From IMG/VR virus record IMGVR_UViG_3300029922_000279, positions 1-25,778 of that record: DNA of 25,778 bases; one strand, given 5' to 3'. The translations under genes and the position numbers were made by a program. Shown piece after piece: positions 5,136 to 25,778 of this stretch. The notes under the pieces were generated by a model. That model searched no databases. It was given only the letters and a program-made list of their open reading frames with translations, and was not told the origin of the DNA. The DNA is from a virus. Position 1 is the stretch's first letter; every line of letters starts with the position of its first letter.

Positions 5136-6208
5136 CCCGTCCTCTTTGCGAAGATTTCGTTCATGCGCTGCTCGGATGGCTGCGCCATTTTGACGCCACC
5201 GGTCATCACCACGTCATGGAACCGCAGCGGGAAGCGATAAAAGCGCTTGCCATGGATGCTATACGCGGTCTCCACCGTGTTGGTGACAGCGAACGACGCG
5301 CCGTCCTTGAAGGACAGATGAAAGTTGCCTTCCAGCCGGACCATGCTGAAATGATAGCCGATGATCTCGATGGCGACAAAATCACCTTTGGCTTCGACGA
5401 CTGAGTCAAGCTTCTTCAGGTTTTTGATCAGGAACTGATCGCGGACGTAATCGACTTCCCGCTTGGCGATCTTTCGGAGTCGTGCGTCCAACTTGTCGGC
5501 TGGCACATCATCAACTTCGCGCAGCAGCCTCAGCGCCTGCATGTGGGCACCGTCCTTGTGATAGGCGCGAGAGATATCATAGCTGCGCGCTGTGGGTTTG
5601 GCTGCGACGAACTCGGCGGCAAAGGTATTAAACTCAGCCACCATCTCATGGTAGGCCGCCACGGTTTGGTCGAACATCCGCTGGTAGGCCGCGTCGGTCA
5701 CCTGCATCAGCGCCTTCTGGACCAGGGCAACGGCATCATTGCCTGCGCGCGGAGCCAGATATTTCATCTGCACGTCTTCGGCAGGCTTCGGCTGACGCTT
5801 CACCGCGAGCGGCTTCAGCGCCATCATCAACTCGGCAATCGGCAGCACCTCGGTCAGAAACGTCCGCTCGGTTTCATCGGTGGTCTTCTTCAGACGACCG
5901 GCCATCTGGTGCATGTAGATCAGCCCCATCCAGTCCGTCCCTTGTGGCCTAGCGTGATTCACAACGTCGCGGGCTTCGTCGAGCCGATTGCCGATGGTGA
6001 ACATCAATTCCTTGAATGCCGCGTTCGGGATCGACCCGGCCGCCAGAGCATCGATCGCGGTTTGGATGGTCTCCCGAAATTTGGCGATCTGCTTGGCTTG
6101 CGCCTGTTCCAGAGCCACCGCGTCGAACTTGGACCCGCGCCGAACCACGATCGGGCGACTGGCCAGCAGGCTGGCTACGTAATCGGTGGCGGTTTGAATG
6201 GTCGGCAT
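5132..6208 (-). CDS. hypothetical protein, coupled to the ADP-ribosyltransferase-like gene
   Basis: The frame opens at an ATG at 6238, but I prefer the ATG at 6208 (MPTIQTATDY): AAGGA is eight bases upstream, and the ten residues before it look like a chance extension. That gives 358 residues, largely helical in the first 290 (repeated Ala/Glu/Gln/Lys heptads), then a short beta-rich part (FVAIEIIGYHF, RLEGNFHLSF, FYRFPLRFHDVVM). I do not recognise it. The stop overlaps the next start by four bases. It may be a partner or carrier for the downstream protein. No late promoter core was seen upstream, so timing probably differs from the neighbouring structural genes. Confidence 0.7.
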   Translation of the reverse strand: MPTIQTATDYVASLLASRPIVVRRGSKFDAVALEQAQAKQIAKFRETIQTAIDALAAGSIPNAAFKELMFTIGNRLDEARDVVNHARPQGTDWMGLIYMHQMAGRLKKTTDETERTFLTEVLPIAELMMALKPLAVKRQPKPAEDVQMKYLAPRAGNDAVALVQKALMQVTDAAYQRMFDQTVAAYHEMVAEFNTFAAEFVAAKPTARSYDISRAYHKDGAHMQALRLLREVDDVPADKLDARLRKIAKREVDYVRDQFLIKNLKKLDSVVEAKGDFVAIEIIGYHFSMVRLEGNFHLSFKDGASFAVTNTVETAYSIHGKRFYRFPLRFHDVVMTGGVKMAQPSEQRMNEIFAKRTG

Positions 6209-6295
6209 AGCGGATGTCCTTGTTCGAGGCCCCTTCATACCACCAAAACAGGCTTTGTCAACCGATAATCGATCGGAAAGAGAATATGTCTACAC

Positions 6296-6705
6296 GTGAA
6301 CTACCCCCGCCCTAAAGAGGCGGGGGCTTCCAAGACCATATTGTCTTGGAACTTTTCACGCTTCAACGATACATGTCTAGATATGTCAATTGCCATATCC
6401 CCGACAGAGGTATCTCCCCGTGCGTAGATTCGGGCGGTCCCCGCCCTATTCATCTCTCTCATCGCCCATAGTTTCAGATTAATCGCCGCATTCGCATCCC
6501 GATCCATTACGAAATCACATGTTTCGCACTCAAAGGTTCTTTGATTGAGTGGCATATCCTGCTTGTGTCCGCATGACGAACAGCACTTCGTACTCGGGTG
6601 AAAGCGATCTACCAGCAATACCTTGCCGCCTCTGGTGGCAAGTTTGTATGAAAGGCGCAATGCGTGTCGATTAGTTCGTGGGCTATTATGTCCTACATGC
6701 AACAA
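6296..6705 (-). mobile_element. remnant of an IS200/IS605-family (IS1341-like) element with its right end
   Basis: The 3' end of a tnpB frame runs into CCCCCGCC (6304-6311) / GGCGGGGG (6319-6326), an 8-bp stem with a CTAAAGA loop, then TAG and TTCAC on the minus strand (6300-6296). In this family the stem is both the DNA right-end hairpin and the 3' part of the guide RNA (omega/reRNA) scaffold, and the element ends just beyond it. I find no tnpA and no left end. The 5' boundary, near 6705, is uncertain. Confidence 0.6.
6301..6705 (-). pseudogene. tnpB: truncated TnpB, C-terminal RuvC-III and zinc-finger part only
   Basis: Only 134 codons remain against roughly 370-400 for a full TnpB. Visible are the VLLVDRFHPSTK strand, the four-cysteine ribbon (CSSCG ... 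CETC) and DRDANAAINL, which carries the third RuvC Asp. The first RuvC Asp, the RuvC-II Glu and the whole wedge/recognition half are missing. The frame opens with TTG at 6705 without a ribosome-binding site, and the 15 residues before ALRLSYKLATRGGK do not look like TnpB. The C-terminus EAPASLGRG is encoded by the right-end hairpin, as usual in the family. It cannot be an active nuclease alone; expression is doubtful. Confidence 0.75.
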
Positions 6706-6781
6706 ATGCCTACGGTTATTTCGATATGACGCGATGATTCTGCTCAGCGAAGCGCATTATGTCGCGACAAGCAATGTCCTG

Positions 6782-6789
6782 TATAAATA
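6782..6789 (+). promoter_or_regulatory. late promoter, full T4 consensus
   Basis: TATAAATA matches the T4 late promoter octamer exactly and ends 22 bases before the ATG at 6812. Unlike other copies here it is not enclosed in an obvious hairpin, so the gene should be expressed from it without a sequestration switch. Confidence 0.7.
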
Positions 6790-6811
6790 AAACCAAAGCG
6801 AAGGAATTTTC

Positions 6812-7261
6812 ATGTCTAAGATTCTTGTTACTAACAATGGGCCTCACCCCCCCGAGAAGTGGGCGATGACCAGCGCCGAAGAGATTTTCCCGATGCAGGA
6901 TGCAGCGTTGACCGGCGAGCATCTGATTGCCGCGCAACGCTTTCAACTTGATTTGGCGGAACTGCTTGAAGATCACCATGGCAATGTCCAGACGGGCGAG
7001 AAAGATTCGCTAACAAGCCATGATGATCATTGTGACAGTGCCCTCGATGTCGAACACCATGTCAAGGCGGCTCTGGCAGCCGTGGTGGAAAAGTCCAAGG
7101 GAACTGCGTGGGAAGCGCATTTCGCCAAGCCGGATGTCCAGGCGGCCGTTTCGAAGGTGCTGGATAGTCATTTCAAGTCATCGGCGCATATCGAGCGTCT
7201 CTGGCATGCCGACAAGAATCCCAACAATGGGGCGGCTCGAACCTACAAGAGCACACACTAA
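6812..7261 (+). CDS. conserved phage protein of unknown function, late expressed
   Basis: The protein has 149 residues. AAGGAA lies seven bases upstream of the ATG. It opens with ILVTNNGPHPPEKWAMTSAEEIF, then a helical GEHLIAAQRFQLDLAELLEDHH segment and several His-rich stretches (HDDHCDS, DVEHHVK). The N-terminal GPHPxEKWA pattern recalls small proteins of T4-like phages of alphaproteobacteria with no assigned role. The consensus late promoter and the downstream virion-type gene suggest a particle or assembly protein. No membrane segment or enzyme motif is visible. Confidence 0.75.
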   Translation: MSKILVTNNGPHPPEKWAMTSAEEIFPMQDAALTGEHLIAAQRFQLDLAELLEDHHGNVQTGEKDSLTSHDDHCDSALDVEHHVKAALAAVVEKSKGTAWEAHFAKPDVQAAVSKVLDSHFKSSAHIERLWHADKNPNNGAARTYKSTH

Positions 7262-8021: not shown

Positions 8022-8079
8022 AAAAATCCCACCTGAAATGTCGAATAAATACCGACATAACAGATCAGGTGGGATTTTT
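8022..8079 (+). promoter_or_regulatory. hairpin with late promoter in the loop, controlling the GIY-YIG gene at 8081
   Basis: AAAAATCCCACCTGA (8022-8036) and TCAGGTGGGATTTTT (8065-8079) form a perfect 15-bp stem. Within the 28-base loop, TGTCG (8039-8043) and CGACA (8053-8057) form an inner stem around AATAAATAC (core 8046-8051). The downstream arm holds the ribosome-binding site AGGTGGG, seven bases before the ATG. Read-through RNA would hide that site; RNA started from the loop would lack the upstream arm. The T run could also make it a terminator for transcription from 7978. Confidence 0.75.
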
Positions 8080-8080
8080 T

Positions 8081-9112
8081 ATGCATAATTGTGGCGTGTA
8101 TCAGATTACGAATATTTTGACAGGCAAATTTTATATCGGGTCTTCGGTGAATATTGCACATCGTTGGCGGCATCATATTTGGCACGCTAAGGGCCAGACA
8201 AATGTCAGTCGTTATCGATTGCAACATGCTCTAGCCAAGCATGGAGAAGAGATGTTCGAATTTGAAGTTTTGGAAGAATGCGAGCCGATCAAAGAAGTCA
8301 TTTTGGCCCGCGAACAACATTACATCGATACATTAAAACCCGACTACAATATCCTACTGATCGCAGGATCGAGGTTGGGCACCAAGCATTCTCCTGAAAC
8401 GATCGAAAAAATGCGCGGTAAAACCCCCTGGAACAAAGGCACAGGGGCACCCAAACTACCTAAAACACCTGAGCAAGAAGAAGCCACCAGACGGGCGCGT
8501 AGTCTCGCTCAGATGGGTCGAATTCCCCATAACAAAGGAATACCTATGACCGAAGAAATGAAAAAACTTATTTCTGATGCCAAAATGGGTAAAAATCTTG
8601 GTCATGAACCCTGGAACAAGGGGATTGAAACTGGACCACAGAGTGCTGAGACTTGTGCTTTGAAGTCGCAGAACAGGAAGGGAAAACAACTTGGTCCGCG
8701 TGGTCCTAGATCGGCTGAAACCGTAAAGCGGATGTCGGAGTCGATGACGGGTATGGAGCGTCTGTATGCCAGAGGCAAGGCCAGTCCCAATAGCAAGAAC
8801 GGTCACTTCGGTATCTCCTGGCGTAAAGATACGCAGAAATGGCAGGTGCGTTTACCGAGTGAGTCATCGCCCGAACAAGATCGCAAATTTGGCTCATACG
8901 ATGTTCTAGAAGATGCTCTGGCACGGCGCGACGAAATTCTGGCAAGGGGTGTTGATAACGCCGTGGCGAACAATGAGAATGCTGGGCGGAGAGTATTGAT
9001 CGATCCGCAGGCTGTGCAGAGTCGTTTGATGTCTGGTATGACCGCATATGCTATTCAGCGCGAACTCGGGATCACCAAACCGACCTACTATCGACTGTTT
9101 GCAGCAGCCTGA
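8081..9112 (+). CDS. free-standing GIY-YIG homing endonuclease with NUMOD and AP2-like DNA-binding parts
   Basis: The protein has 343 residues from the ATG at 8081; a GTG at 8069 lies inside the ribosome-binding site and is rejected. Residues 1-90 are the GIY-YIG nuclease: GVY at 5-7, YIG at 18-20, Arg28 and Glu78 (REQHYIDTLKPDYN), all catalytic positions present. Next come two or three NUMOD3-type repeats (GTKHSPETIEKMRG, PWNKG twice, RSAETVKRMSESM), then a short AP2/NUMOD-like strand region (HFGISWRKDTQKWQVRL ... FGSYDVLEDALARRDE) and a C-terminal helix-turn-helix (MTAYAIQRELGITKPTYYRLF). It should cut one or both strands at a homing site in a phage relative. It sits between genes, not in an intron. 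The upstream hairpin suggests late-only translation, as for T4 I-TevI. Confidence 0.9.
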   Translation: MHNCGVYQITNILTGKFYIGSSVNIAHRWRHHIWHAKGQTNVSRYRLQHALAKHGEEMFEFEVLEECEPIKEVILAREQHYIDTLKPDYNILLIAGSRLGTKHSPETIEKMRGKTPWNKGTGAPKLPKTPEQEEATRRARSLAQMGRIPHNKGIPMTEEMKKLISDAKMGKNLGHEPWNKGIETGPQSAETCALKSQNRKGKQLGPRGPRSAETVKRMSESMTGMERLYARGKASPNSKNGHFGISWRKDTQKWQVRLPSESSPEQDRKFGSYDVLEDALARRDEILARGVDNAVANNENAGRRVLIDPQAVQSRLMSGMTAYAIQRELGITKPTYYRLFAAA

Positions 9113-10102: not shown

Positions 10103-10573
10103 ATGACTCTATCAGTTCAGCCCGGCATCTATCGGATTTCCAATCTGCTGTCGGGCAAGTTTTACATCGGCTCATCCGTCGATATTGCGCAACGCTGGGA
10201 CCAACATCAGTATCAGGCGATCAAAGCGATCCCCACGCGACGCTCCCATCTGTATTCGGCCATGCGTCTTTATGGCCTTGAAAATTTCATCTGCGAAGTA
10301 ATCGAACTCTGCGAACCCAATCGGAGCATGCTGTTCGAACGTGAGCAGCACTACATCGATACCTTGAAGCCGGAATATAATCTGCAATTGAAGGCGGGGA
10401 AGCATGCTCGGCCACAACCCAAACCGATCGCCCCACCTGCTCCGAAATGGACCCAATTGACCCCTCCCGTGCGCGGCAAGTGGCGCTTGGTGGGTGATCT
10501 GCCCGCCATGCCGGACGCCCCACGACGCTGGAGCGGGGTCTTGCCGGTCAGTATTGATGGCACGATTTGGTAA
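10103..10573 (+). CDS. short GIY-YIG endonuclease
   Basis: The protein has 156 residues. GIY is at 8-10, YIG at 21-23, Arg31 and Glu81 (REQHYIDTLKPEYN), so the nuclease core is intact and clearly paralogous to that of 8081-9112. After residue 98 there is only a Pro/Lys-rich linker (ARPQPKPIAPPAPKW) and a short Trp-containing tail, with no NUMOD, AP2 or helix-turn-helix. It could be a minimal endonuclease with relaxed specificity, or a degenerate copy that lost its targeting half. It lies between an intrinsic terminator and the TPR-glycosyltransferase gene, 12 bases before the latter. Confidence 0.85.
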   Translation: MTLSVQPGIYRISNLLSGKFYIGSSVDIAQRWDQHQYQAIKAIPTRRSHLYSAMRLYGLENFICEVIELCEPNRSMLFEREQHYIDTLKPEYNLQLKAGKHARPQPKPIAPPAPKWTQLTPPVRGKWRLVGDLPAMPDAPRRWSGVLPVSIDGTIW

Positions 10574-12466: not shown

Positions 12467-13504
12467 ATGCCGATTAATCTGTATGAGGGCGATTGCCTCG
12501 AAATGATGAAAAGAATGCCAACCGAGTCAATAGACGCGATCGTGACAGACCCACCCGGTGGCATTTCGTTCATGGGAAAGGTTTGGGATTCTAACAAAGG
12601 CGGACGGGATGATTGGATTATGTGGATGACATATATTTCAGCCGAATGTCTCAGGCTTACCAAACCGGGTGGTTATGCTCTGGTGTGGAGCTTTCCCCGG
12701 ACATCACATTGGACAGCGACCGCCTGGGAGAACGCAGGTTGGGAGGTTAGAGATCGCATTGCTTACCTGTTTGGAAGCGGATTTCCCAAATCAAGCAATC
12801 ATCTAAAACCGGCGTGTGAAGATTGGTGGTTGTTGCGTAAGCCATTGAGTGGCACAGTGGCAGTAAACGTAATGACACATGGCACAGGTAATATCAATAT
12901 TGATGAGTGCAGGGTACCAACTGATGGGCCGCGTCCGGGTCGTTCAACCTCCCAAAGCAAAAGTGGCCTTACCGGGTCAGGTGGCGCGGTAACTTATGGA
13001 GCATTTGATGTACGTGGCAGTATCGCCGTTGAAGACACGATCCGAGGACGCTGGCCCACTAACGTAATCCATGACGGCTCAGACGAAGTGATGGAAGAAT
13101 TCGCCAAATATGGTAAACGAGGGGCTTCAGCACCGGTAAGAGGGCATGAACCTAGTCGGACTGGACAAAACGGCATCTACAATCATTGGGATCGTGTACC
13201 TGGCTCGTTTTTCGATGACACCGGCACTGCTGCTCGGTTTTTCTATACATCGAAGGTTTCGCCCAAAGAGCGTGAGGGATCGAAACATCCGACGATGAAG
13301 CCTTTGTCGCTGATCCGCTATCTGTGCCGCCTGATCACACCAACGGGCGGCACGGTATTAGACTGCTTTGCTGGATCGGGCACCACTGGATTGGCGGCTG
13401 TGGAGGAAGGTTTCAATGCCATTCTGATTGAACAGGAGAGCGAGTATATCGAGCATATCAAGAAACGCTTGGCTTTGTTCCTGAACCATTCCACGGAAGG
13501 CTGA
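12467..13504 (+). CDS. DNA methyltransferase, beta-class amino-methyltransferase
   Basis: The protein has 345 residues, with AAGGATG before the ATG. Motif IV (TDPPG, residues 27-31) precedes motif I (DCFAGSGTTG, from about residue 299), the beta-class order for N6-adenine or N4-cytosine transfer from AdoMet. DPPG replaces the usual DPPY; this variant with GISFMGKVWD, RDDWIMWM and KPGGYALVWSFPRTSHWTA is typical of phage and prophage solitary methylases. HPTMKP before motif I is the usual partner motif. No restriction gene is adjacent, so it likely protects phage DNA or alters regulation. The middle (residues 150-230) would carry target recognition. Confidence 0.9.
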   Translation: MPINLYEGDCLEMMKRMPTESIDAIVTDPPGGISFMGKVWDSNKGGRDDWIMWMTYISAECLRLTKPGGYALVWSFPRTSHWTATAWENAGWEVRDRIAYLFGSGFPKSSNHLKPACEDWWLLRKPLSGTVAVNVMTHGTGNINIDECRVPTDGPRPGRSTSQSKSGLTGSGGAVTYGAFDVRGSIAVEDTIRGRWPTNVIHDGSDEVMEEFAKYGKRGASAPVRGHEPSRTGQNGIYNHWDRVPGSFFDDTGTAARFFYTSKVSPKEREGSKHPTMKPLSLIRYLCRLITPTGGTVLDCFAGSGTTGLAAVEEGFNAILIEQESEYIEHIKKRLALFLNHSTEG

Positions 13505-24701: not shown

Positions 24702-24802
24702 CTACGCGGCGTCACTGAACGGGTGGCGCCCAGCTAGCTAAAATGTCCTAGACGCCGCGTAGCCCCCGCTGGAAGCCCGTAGTGGGGGTGTTGCGTGGCT
24801 AC
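24702..24802 (-). other. structured intergenic region downstream of the helicase half
   Basis: CTACGCGGCGTC (24702-24713) and GACGCCGCGTAG (24751-24762) form a perfect 12-bp inverted repeat with a 37-base loop that itself holds GGG..CCC (24721-24731) and the palindrome AGCTAGCT (24732-24739). Immediately beside it CCCCC (24763-24767) pairs with GGGGG (24784-24788), and GTAGCC with GGCTAC (24797-24802, spanning the helicase stop). There is no T tract. It could be an mRNA 3' structure, a leader element of the gene at 24652 or a scar of an inserted element. Confidence 0.5.
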
Positions 24803-25641
24803 GGATACCGCAGCCGGACTTTCTGTACTGGATAGCCCGCCTCGGCGTAATAGGTTTTGCGTTTCGTCAGGTGCCGTGCCGAGAATTTCAATGACGAACA
24901 GACATCATAGATCACGGCATCGCTTTTGTCATTGGCCCGGCGCAGAATCCGTCCCGCCGCCTGGGTGTTACGCACGTATGACTTTCCCGGTTCGAGGATC
25001 ACCAAGTTGAACAGGCGCGGAATATTGATTCCGACTGCGGCGATGCCATAGGTAGCTACTATGATCTTGTTTGTCGCGGTCTGAATGGAATTATATTCGC
25101 GTTGCCGGGTAGTTTCTTTAGTACTGCCTGACACGAACACCGAGTCAGGGATCAGCTTTTGCAGCCGTTTGCCGCTTTCGATCCGATCGACCAGCACCAT
25201 GGTATTGCCGGTGGCCGCCCAGCCTTCGATCAACTTGGCGACATAGGCCAGCCGCTGCGGATCAGTCAGCAGGAATTCATGTTCTTCCTGATAGTCCGCG
25301 AATTCATAGTCCGGGTCGATCAACTGGCGGATTTCGATCTTGCAGTTTGCCAGCACGCCCTTTTCTTGCAGTTCGGCCGCCGAGAGGGTGCCGATCAATG
25401 GCCCGATCGCCGCCAACAGACAAATCGACTCGTGATCTTCCTTGGGCACACTGCCAGTGACGCCCCAGCGGATCGGCACATCCGATAACGCGCCGCATAG
25501 TAACGATTTGAGTTCCTTTCCCTTGATGGTGTGGCAATTCGCCACCACGGCGCCATTGGCTACGTAATTATGGTCGCGTTCAATATGCAGATTATAGGTC
25601 TTTTGCGGCGTGTCGATCTGCGATCGACGGATGAGTTTCAT
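24799..25641 (-). CDS. uvsW: split-intein C-half fused to the C-terminal half of a UvsW-like DExH helicase
   Basis: The protein has 280 residues, ATG at 25641 with AGGAAG four bases upstream and an in-frame stop 15 bases before the ATG, so it is a separate gene and not a frameshift. Residues 1-35 are an intein C-terminal segment: YNLHIERDHNYVANGAVVAN, with the block-F ERDHNY and terminal Asn, followed by Cys36. The +1 Cys continues as CHTIKGKELKSLL, the end of helicase motif II (DE-CH). Then come motif III (GVTGSVPK), IV (TMVLVDRIESGKRL), V (IIVATYGIAAVGINI) and VI (QAAGRILRR), as in T4 UvsW. The length equals a typical naturally split IntC of about 35 residues. The penultimate intein residue is Ala instead of His. 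Trans-splicing with an IntN-tagged N-half is required to rebuild motif II. Confidence 0.88.
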   Translation of the reverse strand: MKLIRRSQIDTPQKTYNLHIERDHNYVANGAVVANCHTIKGKELKSLLCGALSDVPIRWGVTGSVPKEDHESICLLAAIGPLIGTLSAAELQEKGVLANCKIEIRQLIDPDYEFADYQEEHEFLLTDPQRLAYVAKLIEGWAATGNTMVLVDRIESGKRLQKLIPDSVFVSGSTKETTRQREYNSIQTATNKIIVATYGIAAVGINIPRLFNLVILEPGKSYVRNTQAAGRILRRANDKSDAVIYDVCSSLKFSARHLTKRKTYYAEAGYPVQKVRLRYP

Positions 25642-25656
25642 ATAACTTCCTAATAC

Positions 25657-25778
25657 TCATAATACCAGCGGCTCCGTCTCTACAAACGCAATATCTCCCA
25701 GATAGATATTGGATGTTGCGTTCATCCGATCTGATATGGATCGCCAGCGATCTAACTTCAATGATACCCAGCACTCGC
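25657..25778 (-). CDS. C-terminal end of the upstream gene, possibly the IntN-bearing helicase N-half
   Basis: An open frame enters from the right edge and ends at TGA 25657, 15 bases before the IntC start. About 40 residues are visible, ending RMNATSNIYLGDIAFVETE then PLVL. The W, then L-GD step resembles the last strands of intein N-halves, where a LxxGD turn is common, so this could be the IntN tail of the helicase N-half. It could equally be an inserted homing endonuclease or an unrelated gene. The start lies outside the window. Confidence 0.45.
   Translation of the reverse strand, partial: ECWVSLKLDRWRSISDRMNATSNIYLGDIAFVETEPLVL

What the first reader, a model, noticed from the sequence alone, without database searches (positions are those of the whole stretch)
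24799..25641. UvsW-like helicase split inside its DExH box by a naturally split intein
The gene starts with its own ribosome-binding site and a 35-residue IntC (ERDHNYVANGAVVAN), and the +1 Cys is the C of the DE-CH motif II. Neither half alone can form the ATP-hydrolysis site, so helicase activity should appear only after trans-splicing. Split inteins with fractured genes are known from phage metagenomes (gp41, NrdJ and IMPDH types described by Dassa and colleagues). I do not recall one placed at motif II of a UvsW-type helicase. The intein C-terminus also has Ala at the usually His penultimate position.
Basis: partly seen in the sequence, partly recalled or inferred. Interest (0 to 1): 0.93.

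Follow-up and report, generated by a model that had tools for sequence, protein, structure and literature searches.

The report
Phage repair helicase split by intein
A phage makes its UvsW repair helicase as two separate proteins that are predicted to find each other and splice together at the enzyme's catalytic motif; the same split is widespread in other phages, but here the selfish nuclease gene that normally sits between the halves is gone and three unrelated genes lie there instead.

Summary
24799-25641(-) encodes a 35-residue intein C-half followed by Cys-His and the C-terminal half of a UvsW helicase. The window ends 137 bp upstream. Two overlapping contigs (99.94-99.97% identical) continue it and hold the predicted partner: a UvsW N-half ending VICVICDE, then a 99-residue IntN starting with Cys, then a stop, 2881 bp away on the same strand. 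The rejoined extein matches T4 UvsW (2OCA, E 1e-21); the rejoined intein matches solved mini-inteins. So this is a naturally split intein at DE|CH.

It is not a one-off. The same site with a homologous intein occurs in Salmonella phage S16 relatives, Proteus phage PM2 and about 50 IMG/VR loci; PHROGs already holds both halves as 'DNA helicase'. In 45 of 58 loci a NUMOD3/TnsA-like endonuclease gene lies between the halves ('fractured gene' layout). Penultimate Ala is common in this family (16 of 55). This locus differs in that the endonuclease is gone, leaving a 13-nt relic that is now the likely IntC ribosome-binding site, and three unrelated genes fill the gap, two on the opposite strand. I found no paper on it, but the key one (Dassa 2009) was not readable here.

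The parts
24799..25641 (-). C-half gene: IntC followed by UvsW C-terminal extein (280 aa)
25537..25641 (-). IntC, 35 aa, MKLIRRSQIDTPQKTYNLHIERDHNYVANGAVVAN; catalytic terminal Asn, block F His
   Evidence: TIGR01443 27.3 bits; family alignment
24802..25536 (-). UvsW C-extein, 245 aa, starts at +1 Cys of DE-CH motif II and carries the C-terminal helicase motifs (QAAGRILR etc.)
25642..25654 (-). ATTAGGAAGTTAT directly before the IntC ATG: likely ribosome-binding site, identical to the 3' end of the endonuclease gene in relative L081, read as a relic of a lost homing endonuclease
   Evidence: best match of 666 ATG starts in L002; all others match 5 nt or fewer
25657..25659 (-). in-frame TGA upstream of the IntC ATG, so the C-half is a separate gene
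   Evidence: same in L002 and L003
25655..25778 (-). end of the 2881-bp inter-half gap inside the window; the start of the divergent adenine-methylase gene (L002 8772-9929, minus strand of L002) lies here; the N-half itself (L002 6022-7119) is outside the window

Best explanation
This is a naturally split intein that interrupts a UvsW-type SF2 helicase between the E and C of its DECH motif II. The phage makes two proteins: UvsW N-half with IntN (266 + 99 aa) and IntC with UvsW C-half (35 + 245 aa). IntN and IntC should bind each other and fold into one Hint domain. Cys1 starts an N-S acyl shift, +1 Cys takes over the N-extein, the terminal Asn cyclises, and the exteins are joined as ...ICDE-CHTI..., giving a 511-aa UvsW. 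Only then are motif I and the DE (N-half) in one chain with the H of motif II and the C-terminal motifs (C-half), so full ATP hydrolysis should need splicing. The intein belongs to a mobile family that normally carries a homing endonuclease gene between its halves. In this phage that gene was lost, leaving its last 13 nt as the likely IntC ribosome-binding site, and three unrelated genes occupy the gap. Two of them are on the opposite strand, so the C-half probably has its own promoter. Shown by sequence: both halves, the site, the catalytic residues, the family, the gap content, the relic. Inferred: expression, splicing, dependence of activity on splicing, loss of the endonuclease.
For: Both halves with intein and helicase matches. 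Rejoined extein to T4 UvsW 2OCA, E 1.1e-21 over residues 36-495. Rejoined intein to the Spl DnaX mini-intein E 9.8e-12, Npu-type DnaE and NrdJ-1. 55 family members with invariant Cys1, TxNH, block F His, terminal Asn and +1 Cys. Uninterrupted DECH at the site in Agrobacterium phage Atu_ph07 and Xanthomonas phage XaC1. Three contigs agree. Endonuclease between the halves in 45 relatives but not here; 13-nt relic.
Against: No protein or splicing data exist. Individual Pfam intein matches are below the curated cut-off. The query intein is the most divergent of the family (long branch), so reduced activity cannot be excluded. The relic is a short match.
Confidence: 0.9

Rival explanations
1. Decaying element: both halves are still present, but after loss of the endonuclease and separation by 2.9 kb the halves are no longer co-expressed or no longer splice, and another helicase does the job.
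For: Gap filled by unrelated and opposite-strand genes; query intein branch unusually long; the genome is incomplete.
Against: All catalytic intein residues and the main helicase motifs are intact in both halves, both frames are open in all contigs that carry them, and the IntC start keeps a strong ribosome-binding site.
Confidence: 0.07
2. Assembly artefact: a cis-intein or intact helicase gene broken by misassembly or chimerism.
For: All sequences are metagenomic contigs and the window itself ends near the split.
Against: Three records agree at 99.94-99.97%; a fourth holds a 99%-identical N-half start at its edge. The same two-gene layout recurs in isolate genomes S16 and PM2 and in dozens of other contigs.
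Confidence: 0.02
3. The two halves work as a non-covalent complex without splicing, the intein pieces serving only as a dimerisation clamp.
For: Splicing has not been measured; the break lies between the two RecA-like lobes' shared motif region.
Against: Splice-junction and catalytic residues are invariant in all 55 members, which a mere clamp would not require.
Confidence: 0.03

Closest known systems
Split UvsW genes of Salmonella phage S16 group (NC_020416 gp114/gp114.1/gp115) and Proteus phage PM2 (NC_055727)
   Same: Same helicase family, same DE|CH split site, homologous intein (48% identical), IntN 97-98 aa and IntC 35 aa
   Different: 828-bp gap holding a 291-aa endonuclease-like gene in the same direction; penultimate His; exteins only about 25% identical to the query
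phrog_16259 (N-half) and phrog_9690 (C-half), both annotated 'DNA helicase'
   Same: Profiles cover extein plus intein half of each query protein
   Different: Not labelled there as split inteins
'Fractured genes' with split inteins (Dassa et al. 2009, doi 10.1093/nar/gkp095; recalled from memory, paper not held)
   Same: Enzyme gene broken in two by a split intein in phages, usually with a free-standing endonuclease between the halves; true of 45 relatives of this locus
   Different: In the query the endonuclease is absent and three unrelated genes fill the gap. Whether UvsW was among the eight enzyme types I recall from the abstract could not be checked
Npu DnaE, gp41-1, NrdJ-1 canonical split inteins
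   Same: Canonical split point (long IntN, about 35-aa IntC), Cys1; detectable sequence similarity to DnaE and NrdJ-1 structures
   Different: Different host protein and insertion site; gp41-1 was not among the hits
Cis inteins at helicase motif II (Vibrio phage 1.088 helicase L134; IMG/VR L055, L056, L032, L107)
   Same: Same insertion point, DE|CH
   Different: One reading frame, not split; L134, L055 and L056 are other helicases with longer inteins

Membership tests
Naturally split intein (canonical split) | Two separate ORFs carrying IntN (block A Cys/Ser, block B TxxH) and IntC (block F, G with terminal Asn, +1 C/S/T) | tested here: met
Naturally split intein (canonical split) | Both extein pieces together make one complete, known protein | tested here: met
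   T4 UvsW 2OCA E 1.1e-21, residues 36-495
Naturally split intein (canonical split) | Trans-splicing activity | not testable with these tools
   needs co-expression
UvsW helicase (SF2) | UvsW N-terminal domain, motif I, DExH motif II, C-terminal helicase domain in UvsW order | tested here: met
   UvsW_N 20.3 bits, below its 25.3 cut-off; phrog_16
UvsW helicase (SF2) | Branch migration / R-loop unwinding activity | not testable with these tools
   no biochemical data
Fractured gene locus (split intein plus endonuclease between halves) | Enzyme gene broken by split intein in a phage | tested here: met
Fractured gene locus (split intein plus endonuclease between halves) | Free-standing endonuclease gene between the halves | tested here: not met
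   gap ORFs do not match the S16-type endonuclease; none in the phage records. Only a 13-nt 3' relic. Met in 45 relatives

The most novel reading that the evidence does not exclude
After losing its homing endonuclease, this split intein no longer spreads and has been kept as a regulatory device: the two UvsW halves are made from separate transcription units, 2.9 kb apart and separated by opposite-strand genes, so that active helicase appears only when both units are expressed.
Probability: 0.12. Interest if true: 0.75.

Novelty: new variant of a known kind. Interest (0 to 1): 0.5.

Why it matters
It identifies a large, recurrent split-intein family at the catalytic motif of a phage repair helicase, present in cultured Salmonella and Proteus phages where it can be tested at once. 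The relatives show nearly every stage of gene breaking: empty site, endonuclease between the halves, IntN fused to the endonuclease, endonuclease deleted with a relic left, halves re-fused into a cis mini-intein, and here halves separated by unrelated genes. That makes the question of how split inteins arise and persist directly testable, and adds about 55 new IntN/IntC pairs with non-His penultimate residues for protein engineering.

Tried and rejected
(1) Bacterial and archaeal genomes for the IntN region: 61 pattern matches, none confirmed. (2) The 258-aa gap ORF as a diverged endonuclease: hhalign probability 0.2%, no Pfam/NCBIfam/PHROG/PADLOC/PDB match worth reporting, no viral relative beyond the same phage, AlphaFold pLDDT 40, so uninterpretable. 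(3) Tree conflict as proof of horizontal transfer: extein distances between T4-like and other members are far larger than intein distances (8.49 against 1.77; within the core 1.19 against 0.95), but the AU test does not reject the T4-like inteins as one clade (p 0.77) and the extein estimate is saturated, so transfer is likely rather than proven. (4) Streptococcus phage GXN1 hit: a split or cis intein in a terminase-like gene, not this family. (5) A promoter for the C-half: consensus scan found nothing convincing in the 71-bp divergent region before it. (6) Literature: no held paper joins 'split intein' with UvsW; Dassa 2009 and Carvajal-Vallejos 2012 are not held.

Full report
What was claimed.

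Observation. The ORF is as described: 280 aa, ATG start, in-frame TGA 18 nt upstream. TIGR01443 (intein C-terminus) passes its cut-off on residues 15-36, and the rest is a helicase C-terminal domain. The window is a 25,778-bp linear virus record, so the sequence right of 25778 is not in it.

The missing half. A scan of IMG/VR returned two contigs that overlap the window at 99.97% (10,977 bp) and 99.94% (5,133 bp) identity and run past its end. In L002 the N-half is at 6022-7119(+): 266 residues of helicase ending VICVICDE, then a 99-residue IntN beginning CFAADTPVL and containing the block B motif VTGNHRFLT, then a stop. Intein N-terminal and helicase models match it. A 99%-identical start of the N-half lies at the edge of a further record (L006). 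The C-half starts at L002 10001, so the gap is 2881 bp.

What the halves make. Joining the exteins at DE|CH gives 511 aa that align to T4 UvsW 2OCA over 460 residues (E 1.1e-21). Joining IntN and IntC gives 134 aa that match mini-intein structures, best Spl DnaX (E 9.8e-12), then DnaB, Npu-type DnaE and NrdJ-1. The nearest uninterrupted UvsW proteins are in Agrobacterium phage Atu_ph07 and Sinorhizobium phage Phosso (48-50% identical on either half); there motif II reads VMVDECHGSS and IIDEAHQAK with no insert.

A family, not a one-off. PHROGs contains both halves as separate 'DNA helicase' clusters whose profiles include the intein parts. tblastn finds the same arrangement in eight Salmonella phage records of the S16 type and in two records of Proteus phage PM2, annotated only as two DNA helicase genes with a hypothetical protein between. 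Scans with alignments of the junction regions gave 46 N-half and 194 C-half matches in IMG/VR, of which the best 80 C-half loci were kept. After removing duplicates, 58 loci held both halves. In the 55 that could be cut cleanly, every one has DE before and CH after the intein, and Cys1, the block B T, N and H, the block F His and the terminal Asn are invariant. The penultimate residue is Ser 33, Ala 16, His 3, Lys 2, Thr 1.

What normally lies between the halves. In 45 loci the gap holds one ORF of about 300 aa that matches the S16 protein (phmmer E below 1e-26). It has a NUMOD3 DNA-binding motif and a TnsA-like PD-(D/E)xK nuclease domain; matches pass or approach the Pfam cut-offs depending on the member, and PHROGs calls the related cluster 'endonuclease'. 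This is the layout I recall as 'fractured genes' (Dassa et al. 2009; not readable here). Its endonuclease gene overlaps the IntC start codon in the other frame.

Other stages among the relatives. L095: IntN and endonuclease in one ORF, IntC separate. L030, L065, L067: no endonuclease, the two halves overlap by a few bases. L101 and L102: short gaps that still hold the endonuclease's 3' end. L032 (and L033-L036, same intein): a cis mini-intein whose DNA aligns to L103 in two blocks, 89% and 91% identical, joined across a deletion of about 0.9 kb with a short TCACG repeat at the join. This is a split intein that became one chain again. L107 is also cis.

What is different here. The query gap holds an orphan 258-aa ORF on the same strand, and on the opposite strand a protein with a weak WLM-peptidase match and a D12-class adenine methylase. 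None resembles the endonuclease and the endonuclease is not elsewhere in the three records searched (that search had no positive control). The 13 nt before the IntC ATG, ATTAGGAAGTTAT, equal the end of the endonuclease gene of L081 exactly. Of 666 ATG codons in L002 no other matches any endonuclease 3' end by more than 5 nt, and with a position-weight matrix of the 44 cleanly cut endonuclease-type loci this start ranks first of 666. I read this as a relic of a lost endonuclease, kept because it supplies the AGGAAG ribosome-binding site of IntC. Because the methylase is transcribed away from the C-half, the C-half probably has its own promoter; none was recognised.

Spread. S16/PM2 inteins are 48% identical to the query's while the exteins are 25% identical. 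Median ML distances between S16/PM2 and the core group are 8.49 for exteins and 1.77 for inteins, against 1.19 and 0.95 within the core. This favours transfer of the intein between UvsW lineages; the AU test neither proves nor rejects it. The query and its UvsW lie outside the core on long branches in both trees.

Mechanism. Split-intein trans-splicing: association of IntN and IntC, N-S shift at Cys1, transfer to the +1 Cys, Asn cyclisation, ligation. All residues needed are present. Expression, splicing and the dependence of helicase activity on splicing are inferred.

Verdict. Observation confirmed and interpretation essentially right. It is a divergent member of a widespread phage family, notable for having lost the endonuclease and for the genes that separate its halves. 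I could not establish whether the UvsW site was described in 2009; the papers I could search do not mention it.

Noticed in passing
L032 2935-3351 (same intein in L033-L036): Cis mini-intein at the same UvsW site that appears to have arisen by an approximately 0.9-kb deletion fusing IntN to IntC through the last codons of the endonuclease gene, with a short TCACG repeat at the join: a split intein turned back into a contiguous one.
   Followed up: partly
L095 5037-7020: IntN and the endonuclease form one continuous ORF, with the IntC gene overlapping its end: another arrangement in the gene-breaking series.
   Followed up: partly
L008 2182-2817 and L009 5549-6259: uvsW attracts several homing endonucleases: a SegE-like GIY-YIG gene lies just before it in S16, and an HNH/NUMOD3 gene just after the C-half in PM2.
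   Followed up: no
L134 2108-4810; L055 6601-9223; L056 2199-4833: Long cis inteins at exactly the same DE|CH point of motif II in other phage helicases.
   Followed up: partly
window 6301-6705 (-): C-terminal fragment of a TnpB/OrfB-like protein (Cas12f1-like TNB zinc domain, E 2e-18), apparently a decayed insertion element in the phage.
   Followed up: no
window 8069-9112 (+) and 10103-10573 (+): Two GIY-YIG endonuclease genes, the first with a NUMOD3 motif.
   Followed up: no
L002 7186-7962 (+): Orphan 258-aa ORF right after the N-half, with no relative found outside this phage.
   Followed up: yes
window 12467-13504 (+); L002 2594-4261 (+) and 8769-9929 (-): At least three different DNA methyltransferase genes in this phage: two N6_N4 type, one D12 adenine type.
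   Followed up: no
L010 2759-5720: Streptococcus phage GXN1 carries apparent IntC-, IntN- and second IntC-type sequences in a terminase-like gene set, mostly unannotated.
   Followed up: no
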